Shown here piece after piece: positions 3,180-44,882 of a stretch of 64,000 nucleotides of DNA. Position 1 is the stretch's first letter; each line of letters begins with the position of its first letter. The notes under the pieces were generated by a model. The model did no database searches. It saw only the letters and a program-made list of their open reading frames with translations, and was not told where the DNA came from. Position numbers and translations under genes: made by a program. Source of the stretch: Cellulosimicrobium marinum (GTDB lineage Bacteria > Actinomycetota > Actinomycetes > Actinomycetales > Cellulomonadaceae); the NCBI RefSeq assembly GCF_020551945.1, contig NZ_JAJBZH010000007.1, forward strand, positions 51,914-115,913, written 5' to 3'.

Positions 3180-4459
3180 TCGTCCTGGGGCTGTCCTCCG
3201 GGACGTCGGTCGACGCGATCGACGCCGCCGCCGCGGACCTCACGCTCGGGCCCGACGGCGTCCTGCGGATGCGCCCCCTGGGGCACACCGAGTACTCGTG
3301 GCCGGCGGCCCTGCGCGAGCGCATCCTCGCGGCGCTGCCCCCCGCCGCCGTCGGCGTGGCCGAGGTCGCCCAGCTCGACACGCTGATCGGGCAGGAGATC
3401 GGCCGCGCGGGCCGCCGCGCGATCGACGACGTCGCGGGCGGCGACGCCGACCTCGTCGCGTCGCACGGCCAGACCCTCTACCACTGGGTCGTCGGCGCGC
3501 GGGCCCGCGGGAGCCTCCAGCTCGGGAACGCGGCGTGGATCGCGGAGCACGTCAAGCGACCCGTGGTGAGCGACTTCCGGGTGGCCGACATCGCGGCGGG
3601 CGGGCACGGCGCGCCGCTCGTCAGCGTGCTCGACGCGCTGTGGCTCGGGCGCGACCCCGACGACGCGGACGCCGGGCTCACGGCGGCGCTCAACGTCGGC
3701 GGCATCGCGAACGTCACGCTCGTCGGCCGGGTCGACGACCCGGTCACGGGCTGGGACACGGGCCCCGGCAACTGCCTGCTCGACGTCGCGGTCACCGCGC
3801 TCACCGACGGGCGGCTCACCTACGACCGTGACGGCGCGCTCGCCGCGCAGGGCACGGTCGACGAGGTCGCGCTCGCCGCCCTGCTCGACGACCCGTACTT
3901 CGCGGCTCCCGCACCGAAGTCGACGGGCCGCGAGCTGTTCGACGCGACCTACGTCGCGCGCCGCCTCGCCGCCGTGCGGCCGGGGCTCGCGGGGCCGGAC
4001 CTCGTCGCCACGCTCACCGAGCTCACCGCGGTGAGCGTCGCCGACGCGCTCGCCGGGCACGGCGTGCGCCGCGTCGTCGTCTCCGGCGGCGGGGCCCGCA
4101 ACCCGGTGCTCCTGGACCGGCTGCGGGTCGCGCTCGACGCGCGGGTCGCGCCGGGCTGCGCGGTGGTCACCGCGGACGACCTCGGGATGCCGGGCGACGC
4201 CAAGGAGGCGTACCTGTTCGCCCTGCTGGGCTTCCTGTCCGCGCACGGCCTGCCCGGGACCGCCGCCGGCGAGCACCGGCGCCGTGCCACGGGCGCGCGC
4301 CGGGCCGCCGTCCTCGGGTCGCTCACCCCGCCCGGGCCCCTGCCGTGGGACGCGCCGACCACCCCGGTGCGCCGCCTCGTCCTCGCCACCACGCCGCCGG
4401 GGGCCGCCCCGCGCGAACCCGGCCCGACCCCGGGGCCGACGAAGGGAAGTGCCCGATGA
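3176..4459 (+). CDS. anmK: Anhydro-N-acetylmuramic acid kinase
   Basis: Converts 1,6-anhydroMurNAc plus ATP to MurNAc-6-phosphate, the step between NagZ and MurQ in peptidoglycan recycling. The GTG start at 3176 overlaps the nagZ stop (GTGA) and gives 427 residues. The N-terminus reads VIVLGLSSGTSVDAIDAA, the family's ATP-binding GxxSGTSxD signature. Further family motifs are SHGQTLYH, AGGHGAPLV, NVGGIANVT, WDTGPGNCLLD and VVSGGGARNP. A proline-rich tail of about 40 residues follows the kinase fold. It overlaps murQ by 4 bp (ATGA), so all three genes should be translationally coupled. The reading frame is open further upstream, but that part is shadow sequence inside nagZ. Confidence 0.93.
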   Translation: MIVLGLSSGTSVDAIDAAAADLTLGPDGVLRMRPLGHTEYSWPAALRERILAALPPAAVGVAEVAQLDTLIGQEIGRAGRRAIDDVAGGDADLVASHGQTLYHWVVGARARGSLQLGNAAWIAEHVKRPVVSDFRVADIAAGGHGAPLVSVLDALWLGRDPDDADAGLTAALNVGGIANVTLVGRVDDPVTGWDTGPGNCLLDVAVTALTDGRLTYDRDGALAAQGTVDEVALAALLDDPYFAAPAPKSTGRELFDATYVARRLAAVRPGLAGPDLVATLTELTAVSVADALAGHGVRRVVVSGGGARNPVLLDRLRVALDARVAPGCAVVTADDLGMPGDAKEAYLFALLGFLSAHGLPGTAAGEHRRRATGARRAAVLGSLTPPGPLPWDAPTTPVRRLVLATTPPGAAPREPGPTPGPTKGSAR

Positions 4460-40671: not shown

Positions 40672-43197
40672 TCAGCCGCCCGGCGCGCGCGTCACGACGT
40701 TGACGAGCCGCGGCGGGCGCACGACGACGCGCACCACCTCCCGCTCCCGTGTCGCCCGGTCCACGCCCGGGACGGCCAGCGCGTGGGCGCGCAGCGTCGC
40801 CTCGTCGACGTCGGCGGGCACGACGACGCGCCCGCGCACCTTCCCGTCGACCTGCACGACGGCCTCGACGGTGTCGTCGACGAGCAGCGCCGGGTCGACC
40901 ACCGGCCACGCCGCGTCCGCGACCGACGGCGCGTGCCCGAGCCGCTCCCACGCCTCCTCGGCCGTGTACGGGGCGAAGAGCCCGAGCAGCACGGCGACCA
41001 CCTCGGCGGCCTCGCGCACCGCGCCGGCGTGCGCCGCCGCGTCCTCGTCGGGCGCCGGTCCCTCCGACGCCGCCCGACGCGCCGCCGTCACGAGCTCCAT
41101 GAGCCGTGCGACGACGACGTTGAACCGCGAGCGGTCCAGCAGGCCCGCGGCGTCGTCGACCGTGCGGTGCGTGACCCGCCGCAGCGCGTGGGCGCGCGTG
41201 CCGGGGTGCGCGAGCGGCGCGACGGCGCCGGGCGGGGCGACCGGTGGGCCGACCGCACCACCCACGCCCGCGACGTCGTCCACGAGCCGCAGCACCCGCT
41301 CGCAGAACCGGCGCATCGCCGCGGGGTCGACGTCCGCCCAGTCCACGTCGTCCTCCGGCGGCCCCGAGAACACGAGCGCGAGCCGCACCGCGTCCACGCC
41401 CCACCGGTCGAGCTGCGCGCCCAGCTCGACGCCGTTGCCCAGCGACTTGCTCATCGCCCGTCCGCCGTTCAGCACCTTCCCCTGGTTGAGCAGCGTCGCG
41501 AACGGCTCCGTGACGTCCACCCACCCCAGGTCGTGCAGCACCTTCGTCACGAACCGGCTGTACAGCAGGTGCAGGATCGCGTGCTCGACGCCGCCCACGT
41601 ATTGCGCGGCCGGCATCCACCGCCGCGCGTCCCCAGGCCGGAACGGGACGTCCTCCGGGGCGCCGGACGCCCCGAGCGAGCAGTAGCGCAGGAAATACCA
41701 CGACGAGTCGACGAACGTGTCGAGCGTGTCCGGGTCGCGCTCCGCGTCCGCGCCGCACCGCGGGCACGGCACGCGGCGCCACGCGTCCGCGGCGGGCGAC
41801 GCCAGCGGCGAGCGGCCGCGCGGGAGCAGGTCGTCACCCGCGAGGTCGGGCAGCCGCACCGGCAGCGCGTCGTCCGGCACGGGCACGACGCCGCACGCCC
41901 CGCAGTGCACGACCGGCACCGGCGCGCCCCAGTAGCGCTGACGCGACACCAGCCAGTCCCGCAGCCGGTACGACGTCGCGCGCTCGCCCGCGCCCGCCGC
42001 CTCCAGCCGGTCGGTCGCGTCCTCGACCGACGGCCACGTCTCGCCCGACCCCGTCGGCAGGCCGCGCGCGGCGGCGAACCGGGCGTCCCTCTCGTCGTGG
42101 GCCGGGACGCCCATGACGACGCCCGTCCCGTACCCCGGCAGCACGTGCTCCGCCGCCCACACCGGCAGCCGCTCGCCCGACACCGGGTGCCGCACCCACG
42201 CGCCGAGGAACACGCCGCGGGCGCTCGCGGACGCGGACGACCGCGCGATGTCTCCGGCGTCCTGCGCCGCGCGGCGCAGGACGGCCAGCGCGTCCGCGTG
42301 CTCCGGCGCGCACAGCGCCGCCGCGACCGGGCTCTCCGGCGCGACGGCCAGGAACGTCACCCCGGGCACGGTGTCCGGGCGGGTCGTGAACGCCTCGACC
42401 ACGACGGGCGAGGGCACCGCCCGGCCCGACGGCGCGGCGTCGGGCACGACGTCGAAGCGCACCCGGGCGCCGTGGCTGCGCCCGACCCAGTTCCGCTGCA
42501 TCGTCAGCACCCGGTCGGGCCACGCGCCCTCCAGGGCGGTCATGTCGTCGAGCAGCCGGTCCGCGTACGCCGTGACGCGCACGAACCACTGCGTGAGCTC
42601 GCGCTGGACCACGGGCGTGCCGCAGCGCTCGCACCGACCGCCGACGACCTGCTCGTTGGCCAGGACCGTCGCGTCCGTCGGGCACCAGTTGACCGGCGCC
42701 GTCGCGCGGTACGCGAGGTCGTGCTCCAGCAGGCGCAGGAACAGCCACTGCGTCCAGCGGGAGTACTCGGGGCGGTGCGTCTCCAGGCGGCGCGACCAGT
42801 CGAACGAGACGCCGTAGCGCCGGGCCGTGGCGGCCTGGGTCGCGATGTTCGTCTCCGTGAAGACGGCAGGGTTCTCGCCGCGGCGGATCGCCGCGTTCTC
42901 CGCGGGCAGGCCGAACGAGTCCCAGCCGATCGGGTTGAGCACGTCGAACCCGCGCAGCCGCCAGGACCGCGCCACGACGTCCTCCAGCGCGAACACCTCC
43001 GCGTGACCCATGTGCAGGTCGCCGGACGGGTAGGGGAACATCGTCAGCAGGTAGCGGCGGGGGCGCGCGCCGTCGTCGCGCGCACGGAACGTGCCGTGCT
43101 CGTCCCAGAAGCGCTGCCAGCGCTCCTCGACGTCGGCGGTGGTGGAGCGGCGGGGCGCAGGGTCGGCTGCAGGGGGTGCGGGACGCGGGGTGACCAC
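40672..43197 (-). CDS. leuS: Leucyl-tRNA synthetase, compact type
   Basis: Charges tRNA-Leu. 841 residues. HIGH motif in PYPSGDLHMGHAEVF; then GFDVLNPIGWDSFGLPAENA and NWCPTDATVLANEQVV. The CP1 editing domain has TTRPDTVPGVTFL and GVVMGVPAHDERD, with the editing aspartate retained. Next are YRLRDWLVSRQRYWGAP, and KMSKS as RAMSKSLGNG. The linker after CP1 is very short, so it is smaller than usual actinobacterial LeuRS (about 950, with HPLGYDAFGLPAEQ). This resembles the proteobacterial-type sequence and suggests a second, inducible LeuRS. Start GTG at 43197 with GAGGAG upstream; preceded by a Leu-rich leader ORF and hairpin. Confidence 0.93.
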   Translation of the reverse strand: MVTPRPAPPAADPAPRRSTTADVEERWQRFWDEHGTFRARDDGARPRRYLLTMFPYPSGDLHMGHAEVFALEDVVARSWRLRGFDVLNPIGWDSFGLPAENAAIRRGENPAVFTETNIATQAATARRYGVSFDWSRRLETHRPEYSRWTQWLFLRLLEHDLAYRATAPVNWCPTDATVLANEQVVGGRCERCGTPVVQRELTQWFVRVTAYADRLLDDMTALEGAWPDRVLTMQRNWVGRSHGARVRFDVVPDAAPSGRAVPSPVVVEAFTTRPDTVPGVTFLAVAPESPVAAALCAPEHADALAVLRRAAQDAGDIARSSASASARGVFLGAWVRHPVSGERLPVWAAEHVLPGYGTGVVMGVPAHDERDARFAAARGLPTGSGETWPSVEDATDRLEAAGAGERATSYRLRDWLVSRQRYWGAPVPVVHCGACGVVPVPDDALPVRLPDLAGDDLLPRGRSPLASPAADAWRRVPCPRCGADAERDPDTLDTFVDSSWYFLRYCSLGASGAPEDVPFRPGDARRWMPAAQYVGGVEHAILHLLYSRFVTKVLHDLGWVDVTEPFATLLNQGKVLNGGRAMSKSLGNGVELGAQLDRWGVDAVRLALVFSGPPEDDVDWADVDPAAMRRFCERVLRLVDDVAGVGGAVGPPVAPPGAVAPLAHPGTRAHALRRVTHRTVDDAAGLLDRSRFNVVVARLMELVTAARRAASEGPAPDEDAAAHAGAVREAAEVVAVLLGLFAPYTAEEAWERLGHAPSVADAAWPVVDPALLVDDTVEAVVQVDGKVRGRVVVPADVDEATLRAHALAVPGVDRATREREVVRVVVRPPRLVNVVTRAPGG

Positions 43198-43268
43198 GGT
43201 GAGGCTCCTCGAGAAGGTGGGCGTCGTCGTCGGGCACTCACCTGGGACCGTGGGGACGCGCAGGCACC

Positions 43269-43307
43269 GCCGCGCTGAGCGTGCCCGCCCGGCGGGCTCA
43301 GCGCGGC
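43269..43307 (-). promoter_or_regulatory. Attenuator hairpin in the leuS leader
   Basis: On the minus strand GCCGCGCTGAGC (43307-43296) pairs perfectly with GCTCAGCGCGGC (43280-43269), 12 bp, with an inner CCGCC/GGCGG. The 5' arm contains the leader-peptide stop codon TGA. A ribosome finishing the leader would cover this arm, while one stalled at the Leu codons would leave it differently exposed. No T-run follows, so it may act at translation or by an actinobacterial-type terminator. Confidence 0.7.
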
Positions 43308-43345
43308 CGGCGAAGGAGGAGCTGCACGGGTCGCATCCCGGACAT
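43298..43345 (-). CDS. Leucine-rich leader peptide upstream of leuS
   Basis: A 15-codon ORF encoding MSGMRPVQLLLRRPR, with three consecutive Leu codons (CTC CTC CTT), ends in a TGA inside the hairpin 5' arm. Translation could start at either in-frame ATG (43345 or 43336). TTGACG (43373-43368) lies upstream as a possible -35. This is the layout of Leu-responsive attenuators known for amino-acid genes in Actinobacteria. The leuS start lies 100 bp downstream of its stop. Regulation by leucine is inference from this layout. Confidence 0.65.
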   Translation of the reverse strand: MSGMRPVQLLLRRPR

Positions 43346-43463
43346 CGTCACCCGCGTCGCCGGTCCCCGTCAACGACTGGACCGGTCCCGTGGGCCGCGC
43401 GCGGGCGTGCGGAGTGTGGCGGACGTCGCCCGCCCCGGCGGTCCGGCGCCGTTCCGCCGCCAG

Positions 43464-43469
43464 TAGGCT
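43464..43469 (+). promoter_or_regulatory. -10 box (TAGGCT) for leaderless lpdA
   Basis: TAGGCT, six bases, then the ATG at 43476; no ribosome binding site fits. Confidence 0.5.
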
Positions 43470-43475
43470 TGCCGT

Positions 43476-44882
43476 ATGGCATCCCACTACGACGTCGTCG
43501 TCCTCGGTGCAGGCCCCGGTGGTTACGTGGCCGCGATCCGTGCAGCCCAGCTGGGCCTGCAGGTCGCGGTCGTGGAGGAGAAGTACTGGGGTGGGGTGTG
43601 CCTCAACGTGGGCTGCATCCCGTCCAAGGCGCTCCTGCGCAACGCCGAGCTCGCGCACCTCTTCACGCACGACGCGAAGACCTTCGGCATGTCCGGCGAG
43701 GTGACCTTCGACTTCGGCGCGGCGTTCGACCGCTCGCGCACCGTCGCCGAGGGGCGCGTCAAGGGCGTGCACTTCCTCATGAAGAAGAACAAGATCACCG
43801 AGTACGACGGCCGCGGCACGTTCCGCGACGCGAACACGCTCGACGTGAAGCTCGCCGACGGCTCGACGGACCAGGTCACGTTCGACAACGTCATCATCGC
43901 GACCGGCTCGAAGGTGCGCCTGCTCCCGGGCGTCGAGCTGTCCGAGAACGTCGTCACGTACGAGAAGCAGATCCTCACGCGCGAGCTGCCGAAGTCCATC
44001 GCCATCGTCGGCGCCGGCGCCATCGGCATGGAGTTCGGCTACGTCCTCAAGAACTACGGCGTGGACGTCACCATCATCGAGTTCCTCGACCGCGCCCTGC
44101 CCAACGAGGACGCCGACGTCTCCAAGGAGATCGCCAAGCAGTACAAGAAGCTCGGCGTGAAGCTGCTGACGTCGACGGCGGTCCAGACGGTCACCGACAA
44201 CGGCACCGACGGCGTCAAGGTCACCTACAAGGGCGTCAAGGACGACAAGCCGGACGAGCTCGTCGTCGACAAGGTCCTCATGGCCGTCGGCTTCGCCCCC
44301 AACGTCGAAGGCTTCGGCCTCGAGAACACCGGCGTCCAGCTCACCGAGCGCGGCGCCATCGCCATCGACGACGTCATGCGCACCAACGTCGACCACATCT
44401 ACGCCATCGGCGACGTCACCGCCAAGCTCATGCTCGCCCACGTCGCCGAAGCACAGGGCGTCGTCGCCGCCGAGACCATCGGCGGCGCCGAGACCCTCAC
44501 CCTCGGCGACTACCGCATGATGCCCCGCGCCACCTTCTGCCAGCCGCAGGTCGCCAGCTTCGGCCTCACCGAGCAGCAGGCCAAGGACGAGGGCTACGAG
44601 GTCAAGGTCGCCACCTTCCCCTTCATGGCCAACGGCAAGGCCCACGGCCTCGGCGACCCCGTCGGATTCGTCAAGCTCATCTCCGACGAGACCTACGGCG
44701 AGCTCCTCGGCGGCCACCTCATCGGCCCCGACGTCTCAGAGATGCTGCCCGAGCTCACCCTCGCGCAGAAGTGGGACCTCACCGTCAACGAGCTCTCGCG
44801 CAACGTGCACACGCACCCGACGCTGTCCGAGGCCGTCCAGGAGTCCATCCACGGCCTCGCGGGGCACATGATCAACTTCTAG
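43476..44882 (+). CDS. lpdA: Dihydrolipoyl dehydrogenase
   Basis: FAD-dependent E3 component of 2-oxoacid dehydrogenase and glycine cleavage complexes, reoxidising dihydrolipoyl groups with NAD+. 468 residues. FAD site [20 protein letters not shown]; redox disulfide [19 protein letters not shown] site [28 protein letters not shown]-terminal interface with [20 protein letters not shown], holding the catalytic His-Glu pair. The start is leaderless. A strong terminator follows, and the accessory island begins directly after it. Confidence 0.97.

What the first reader, a model, noticed from the sequence alone, without database searches (positions are those of the whole stretch)
43269..43373. Leucine attenuator-like leader in front of leuS
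A 15-codon ORF (MSGMRPVQLLLRRPR) has three adjacent Leu codons, and its stop lies within the 5' arm of a 12-bp perfect hairpin. TTGACG stands upstream as a possible -35. Attenuation by leader peptides is established for amino-acid genes in Actinobacteria, but here the target is a tRNA synthetase gene, where T-boxes are more usual.
Basis: partly seen in the sequence, partly recalled or inferred. Interest (0 to 1): 0.75.

Follow-up and report, generated by a model that had tools for sequence, protein, structure and literature searches.

The report
Leucine-sensing leader before second leuS
A 12-codon leader peptide with three leucine codons sits in front of a second leucyl-tRNA synthetase gene in Cellulosimicrobium; it belongs to a leucine-sensing leader family already known in actinobacteria, but in this genus the usual transcription terminator is gone, so it probably works in a different way.

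Summary
On the minus strand, the ORF, three Leu codons, stop codon inside the 5' arm of a 12-bp perfect hairpin, and TTGACG are all present. The first ATG (43345) overlaps the -10 box, so the probable start is the second ATG (43336), giving a leaderless 12-codon peptide, MRPVQLLLRRPR. Promoter, Leu codons and hairpin are conserved in all 15 Cellulosimicrobium leuS orthologues examined; one further genome keeps the leader after losing leuS. The leader is therefore under selection.

The kind is known. leuS attenuators were predicted in Streptomyces in 2005, and RNA-seq of S. lividans shows the leaderless homologue MRAVRLLLSEPR. A covariance model finds the terminator-bearing form in 124 of 296 genomes of the class.

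Two things differ here. The gene is a second LeuRS; the long housekeeping leuS of the same genome has no such leader. In this genus the terminator is missing; instead the Leu codons match the leuS Shine-Dalgarno over 7-8 bases, as in the leuA LEU element. I favour translational control, but the support is modest: no covariation, pseudoknot pairing not better than chance, weak computed switch. Rho-dependent termination remains open. Nothing was tested experimentally.

The parts
43368..43373 (-). -35 hexamer TTGACG (TTGACC in the other species)
   Evidence: TTGAC invariant in 15 Cellulosimicrobium sequences; coordinates
43344..43349 (-). -10 hexamer GACGAT (CACGAT, CACAAT in relatives), 18 nt after the -35, 7 nt before the leader ATG
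   Evidence: relatives' leaders start about 6 nt after a TANNNT box
43298..43336 (-). leader ORF ATG-TGA, MRPVQLLLRRPR*, probably leaderless
   Evidence: RNA-seq leaderless homologue MRAVRLLLSEPR in S. lividans (PMC8079986)
43313..43321 (-). three Leu codons CTC CTC CTT; with the preceding G complementary to the leuS SD (GCUCCUC/GAGGAGC)
   Evidence: identical in 15 of 15 genomes; complementarity
43296..43307 (-). hairpin P1, 5' arm GCCGCGCTGAGC, containing the leader stop codon
   Evidence: invariant; equivalent helix covaries in 21 terminator-type leuS leaders
43281..43295 (-). P1 loop CCGCCGGGCGGGCAC; CGGGCAC could pair with GUGCCCG at 43237-43231
   Evidence: invariant; pairing p 0.1-0.3 by shuffling, not significant
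43269..43280 (-). hairpin P1, 3' arm GCTCAGCGCGGC
43231..43237 (-). GTGCCCG within a conserved block (GAGTGCCCGACGACGA) downstream of a linker of variable length
   Evidence: conserved in 15 of 15 genomes
43203..43210 (-). leuS Shine-Dalgarno region GAGGAGCC
   Evidence: GAGGAGCC in 13 of 14 leaders tested, complementary over 7-8 nt to the Leu-codon region; 5 nt in L010
40672..43197 (-). leuS, second (short, 841-aa) bacterial leucyl-tRNA synthetase
   Evidence: TIGR00396 775 bits against cut-off 548; long leuS elsewhere in the genome, G000:C1:509660
43476..44882 (+). divergent neighbour, dihydrolipoyl dehydrogenase (lpdA)
   Evidence: TIGR01350 558 bits

Best explanation
This is a leuL-type leader: a leaderless 12-codon peptide whose CTC CTC CTT run senses charged leucyl-tRNA and sets the expression of a second LeuRS. 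When leucyl-tRNA is scarce, ribosomes stall on the Leu codons. I think it most likely that in this genus the output is translation initiation rather than transcription termination: when leucyl-tRNA is plentiful the Leu-codon stretch (G)GCUCCUC pairs with the leuS Shine-Dalgarno GAGGAGC(C), held near it by hairpin P1, and a stalled ribosome prevents this pairing and frees the site. Supported by comparison: leader, Leu codons, promoter and P1 under strong constraint; homology to leuS attenuators; absence of a terminator; a second leuS in the genome. Inferred: leaderless start, leucine sensing, SD sequestration. My estimates: leucine-sensing leader for leuS 0.8; output by SD sequestration, given that, about 0.5.
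For: Leader and hairpin in 16 of 17 genus genomes. A 54-nt core is on average 98.7% identical while fourfold sites of leuS are 71% identical. Model R1 of terminator-type leuS leaders finds it as a full-length match from ATG 43336 (20 bits, E 0.0037; L010 25.9 bits). R1 matches occur in 93 of 297 order genomes and 124 of 296 class genomes, and 25 of 30 inspected matches lie before a leuS. S. lividans leuS has the leaderless leader MRAVRLLLSEPR. For the SD mode: no U-tract terminator; Leu region/SD complementarity 7-8 nt in 13 of 14 genus leaders against 3-6 nt in 19 terminator-type leaders; the LEU-element model R2 matches the genus leaders at the right place, 13-26 bits, but gives no clear match at terminator-type leaders; leuA LEU elements have the same order of parts.
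Against: The pairing segments hardly vary, so there is no compensatory change in the genus; the loop/GUGCCCG pairing is no better than chance (p 0.1-0.3). SDs complement CUC-rich stretches by nature, so part of the 7-8 nt match is expected; L010 keeps only 5 nt. In nested folding, blocking the Leu codons lowers the cost of opening the SD by at most 1.9 kcal/mol, and not at all in some species. All genus sequences represent one evolutionary event. Whole-genome scans with strict filters miss the window's own element. Half the sequences in R2 come from this genus. For S. coelicolor leuA, Leu-codon mutations did not behave as classical attenuation predicts (cited in PMC1262725).
Confidence: 0.45

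Rival explanations
1. Leader-peptide attenuation with Rho-dependent termination: in leucine-rich cells the ribosome leaves at the stop codon and Rho terminates in the C-rich linker between hairpin and leuS; a stalled ribosome or P1 prevents this.
For: No intrinsic terminator in the intergenic region; the region before the SD is C-rich. PMC1262725 proposes Rho for terminator-less Cys leaders in Mycobacterium.
Against: The linker varies in length and sequence between species; no defined rut site was or could be tested; does not explain the extended Leu-codon/SD match.
Confidence: 0.25
2. Classical transcription attenuation as in relatives, with a terminator that is divergent or lacks a U-tract.
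For: Homology to terminator-type leaders; L010 has GGACG/CGUCC at the terminator position.
Against: No terminator-like site; no U-run in 15 species. If P1 itself were the terminator the logic would be reversed, since a ribosome at the stop codon would block it.
Confidence: 0.1
3. Vestige: the attenuator decayed when the terminator was lost and leuS is now constitutive.
For: Terminator lost; leuS itself is dispensable (absent in G006 and G008).
Against: Leader and hairpin are far more conserved than synonymous sites; the leader frame, Leu codons and promoter are intact in all species.
Confidence: 0.1
4. The short leader RNA or peptide acts by itself (in trans), apart from leuS.
For: G006 has lost leuS but keeps promoter, leader and hairpin with a 100% identical 72-nt core.
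Against: One genome only; the loss may be recent; no target known.
Confidence: 0.05

Closest known systems
leuS attenuator of Streptomyces (Seliverstov et al. 2005, PMC1262725; LeuL2 of S. lividans, PMC8079986)
   Same: Short leader before leuS with a Leu run and ending in PR* (MRAVRLLLSEPR / MRPVQLLLRRPR), leaderless start, hairpin after the Leu run
   Different: Streptomyces has a terminator with U-tract; here none. Here the gene is a second leuS.
LEU element of actinobacterial leuA (PMC1262725; LeuL1 of S. lividans)
   Same: Leaderless Leu-run leader, hairpin, no terminator, Leu codons complementary to the SD, candidate loop-downstream pseudoknot
   Different: Different gene; different hairpin sequence; stop codon in the stem here; the pseudoknot pairing is not statistically supported here.
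Attenuated auxiliary trpS/TrpRS1 of Streptomyces (indolmycin-resistant; from memory of Vecchione and Sello 2009, 2010; the resistant second TrpRS is cited in PMC9437257)
   Same: Second aminoacyl-tRNA synthetase copy under a leader peptide rich in its own amino acid
   Different: Leucine; no resistance role known or tested; no terminator
T-box leaders of aminoacyl-tRNA synthetase genes
   Same: Sense tRNA charging before a synthetase gene
   Different: Bind tRNA directly; no T-box or other Rfam family matched here

Membership tests
Actinobacterial leuS attenuator (leuL2 type) | Located before a leuS gene | tested here: met
   TIGR00396; 15 orthologues
Actinobacterial leuS attenuator (leuL2 type) | Short leader ORF with a Leu-codon run near its stop | tested here: met
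Actinobacterial leuS attenuator (leuL2 type) | Hairpin beginning at the end of the leader ORF | tested here: met
Actinobacterial leuS attenuator (leuL2 type) | Sequence/structure homology (model R1, genus not in the training set) | tested here: met
   Full-length match, 20 bits, E 0.0037 in 139 kb; below threshold in filtered whole-genome scans
Actinobacterial leuS attenuator (leuL2 type) | Intrinsic terminator with U-tract after the hairpin | tested here: not met
   hence a variant or derived relative, not a classical attenuator
Actinobacterial leuS attenuator (leuL2 type) | Leaderless transcription of the leader | tested here: inconclusive
   -10 box 7 nt before the ATG; no transcript data
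LEU element of leuA | Leu codons pair with the SD of the downstream gene | tested here: inconclusive
   7-8 nt perfect complement in 13 of 14; no covariation; folding effect weak
LEU element of leuA | Pseudoknot between hairpin loop and downstream strand | tested here: inconclusive
   7-nt complement conserved but p 0.1-0.3
LEU element of leuA | Located before leuA | tested here: not met
   before leuS; leuA has its own element
T-box | T-box covariance model match | tested here: not met
   No Rfam match up to E 5 except two microRNA chance hits elsewhere

The most novel reading that the evidence does not exclude
In one genus a transcription attenuator of leuS lost its terminator and was turned into a translational, LEU-element-like switch by extending the complementarity of its Leu codons to the leuS Shine-Dalgarno, on a duplicated leuS whose housekeeping partner carries no such leader.
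Probability: 0.35. Interest if true: 0.55.

Novelty: new variant of a known kind. Interest (0 to 1): 0.4.

Why it matters
It gives a natural series, from terminator-bearing to terminator-less leuS leaders and leuA LEU elements, in which to test how leader-peptide control moves between transcription and translation. The mechanism of the leuA LEU element was left open in 2005 and I found no later resolution in the papers searched; a leuS relative with an extended Leu-codon/SD match offers a second test case. It also suggests that this genus keeps a leader-free housekeeping LeuRS and a leucine-responsive spare, as streptomycetes do for TrpRS.

Tried and rejected
T-box or other known RNA family: no Rfam match. 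Unusual folding energy as evidence: z -0.13 and -0.82, rejected. P1 as terminator: rejected on logic (stop codon in its 5' arm) and lack of U-tract. Alternative hairpin GGCAC/GUGCC after P1: looked at by eye, broken in L010, dropped. Pseudoknot as proof of a LEU element: complementarity not significant. Covariation in the genus: uninformative, too invariant; in leuA elements (A1) covariation also did not clearly exceed shuffles. A coding test (dN/dS) of the leader was not attempted, too few changes.

Full report
What is there. The leader lies on the minus strand in the 278-bp gap between leuS (40672-43197, minus) and the divergent lpdA (43476-44882, plus). The ORF, the three Leu codons, the 12-bp hairpin with the stop codon in its 5' arm and TTGACG are all as described. 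In a scan of the window this is the only short LLL ORF with a long hairpin over its stop, and 40 shuffles gave none. Folding energy is not exceptional for such GC-rich DNA.

Start of the leader. The second ATG (43336) lies 7 nt after the box, the usual place for a leaderless start. Terminator-type leuS leaders in related genera nearly all show a TANNNT box about 6 nt before the leader start codon, the model built from them aligns its start codon to 43336, and the S. lividans leuS leader was found leaderless by RNA-seq. So the peptide is probably MRPVQLLLRRPR. No transcript data exist for this genus here.

Conservation. The genus is Cellulosimicrobium (contig G002:C16 has the same length as the C. 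funkei JCM 14302 contig; inference). The leader is in 16 of 17 genomes. In 15 orthologues the promoter, Leu codons and hairpin, loop included, are almost unchanged, followed by a linker of variable length and a second conserved block before the SD. A 54-nt core averages 98.7% identity (minimum 94.4%) against 71% at fourfold sites of leuS. G006 has lost leuS but keeps the leader; no same-strand gene clearly follows it.

The gene. The window's leuS is complete (TIGR00396) and is a second copy: a long leuS at G000:C1:509660 is only about 45% identical over the matched N-terminal segment. The short type is in 15 of 17 genus genomes and, as a strong match, in only two of the other 20 family genomes tested (G018, G022). 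The long leuS of this genus shows no such leader (L031, L032, L035).

The family. Seliverstov et al. 2005 (PMC1262725) predicted leader-peptide attenuators before leuS in Streptomyces; PMC8079986 reports by RNA-seq the leader MRAVRLLLSEPR before leuS in S. lividans. I aligned 21 terminator-type leuS leaders; both helices, the first hairpin and the terminator, show covariation well above the shuffled and slid controls. The model R1 finds such elements in 93 of 297 genomes of the order and 124 of 296 of the class; of 30 loci inspected 25 have leuS next to the match (some are training members). It matches all Cellulosimicrobium sources searched as weak but top-ranking full-length hits, 18-26 bits; with strict whole-genome filters it misses the window's genome.

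What differs. Terminator-type relatives have CCCCTC...GAGGGG and a T-run after the hairpin; this genus has neither. Instead the Leu-codon region is complementary over 7-8 nt to the leuS SD in 13 of 14 leaders, against 3-6 nt in 19 terminator-type leaders with a roughly assigned start. This is the arrangement of the leuA LEU element, which I recovered in the same genomes. A model of the leuA elements (R2) also hits the genus leuS leaders in place (13-26 bits) but not, clearly, the terminator-type ones. Limits: R2 includes six Cellulosimicrobium leuA sequences; the loop/downstream pairing is at chance level; nothing covaries; computed opening of the SD changes by 0-1.9 kcal/mol when the Leu codons are blocked.

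Mechanism. Sensing of leucyl-tRNA by ribosome stalling at the Leu run follows from the family and from constraint on the codons (0.8). The output step is open: SD sequestration is my first choice, Rho-dependent termination second.

Novelty. A member by descent of a known leader family, in a variant without terminator, on a duplicated leuS. Not categorically new.

Noticed in passing
window 43414-43427 (-): GACGTCCGCCACAC, invariant in 15 lpdA-leuS gaps, resembles GGACGTCCGCGACGCAC just before the leuA leader promoter of the same genome; the one-mismatch pattern occurs 26 times in the genome against 2 for the reversed control. Possibly a shared regulator site.
   Followed up: partly
window 43463-43478 (+): lpdA also looks leaderless: TAGGCT, 6 nt, ATG.
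   Followed up: no
L075 (G006:C44), around 3303-3374: Orphan leuS leader: promoter, leader ORF and hairpin kept with a 100% identical core although leuS is gone.
   Followed up: partly
L190 and L191 (G253): A genome of the same order with both short and long leuS, each preceded by a match to the terminator-type attenuator model.
   Followed up: partly
L039 (G029): Terminator-type leuS attenuator before the long leuS in a family member that lacks a strong match to the short one; its hairpin resembles that before the short leuS of G022.
   Followed up: no
L168 (G009:C1:2503195-2504826): A second leuA-like gene with one in-frame TGA.
   Followed up: no
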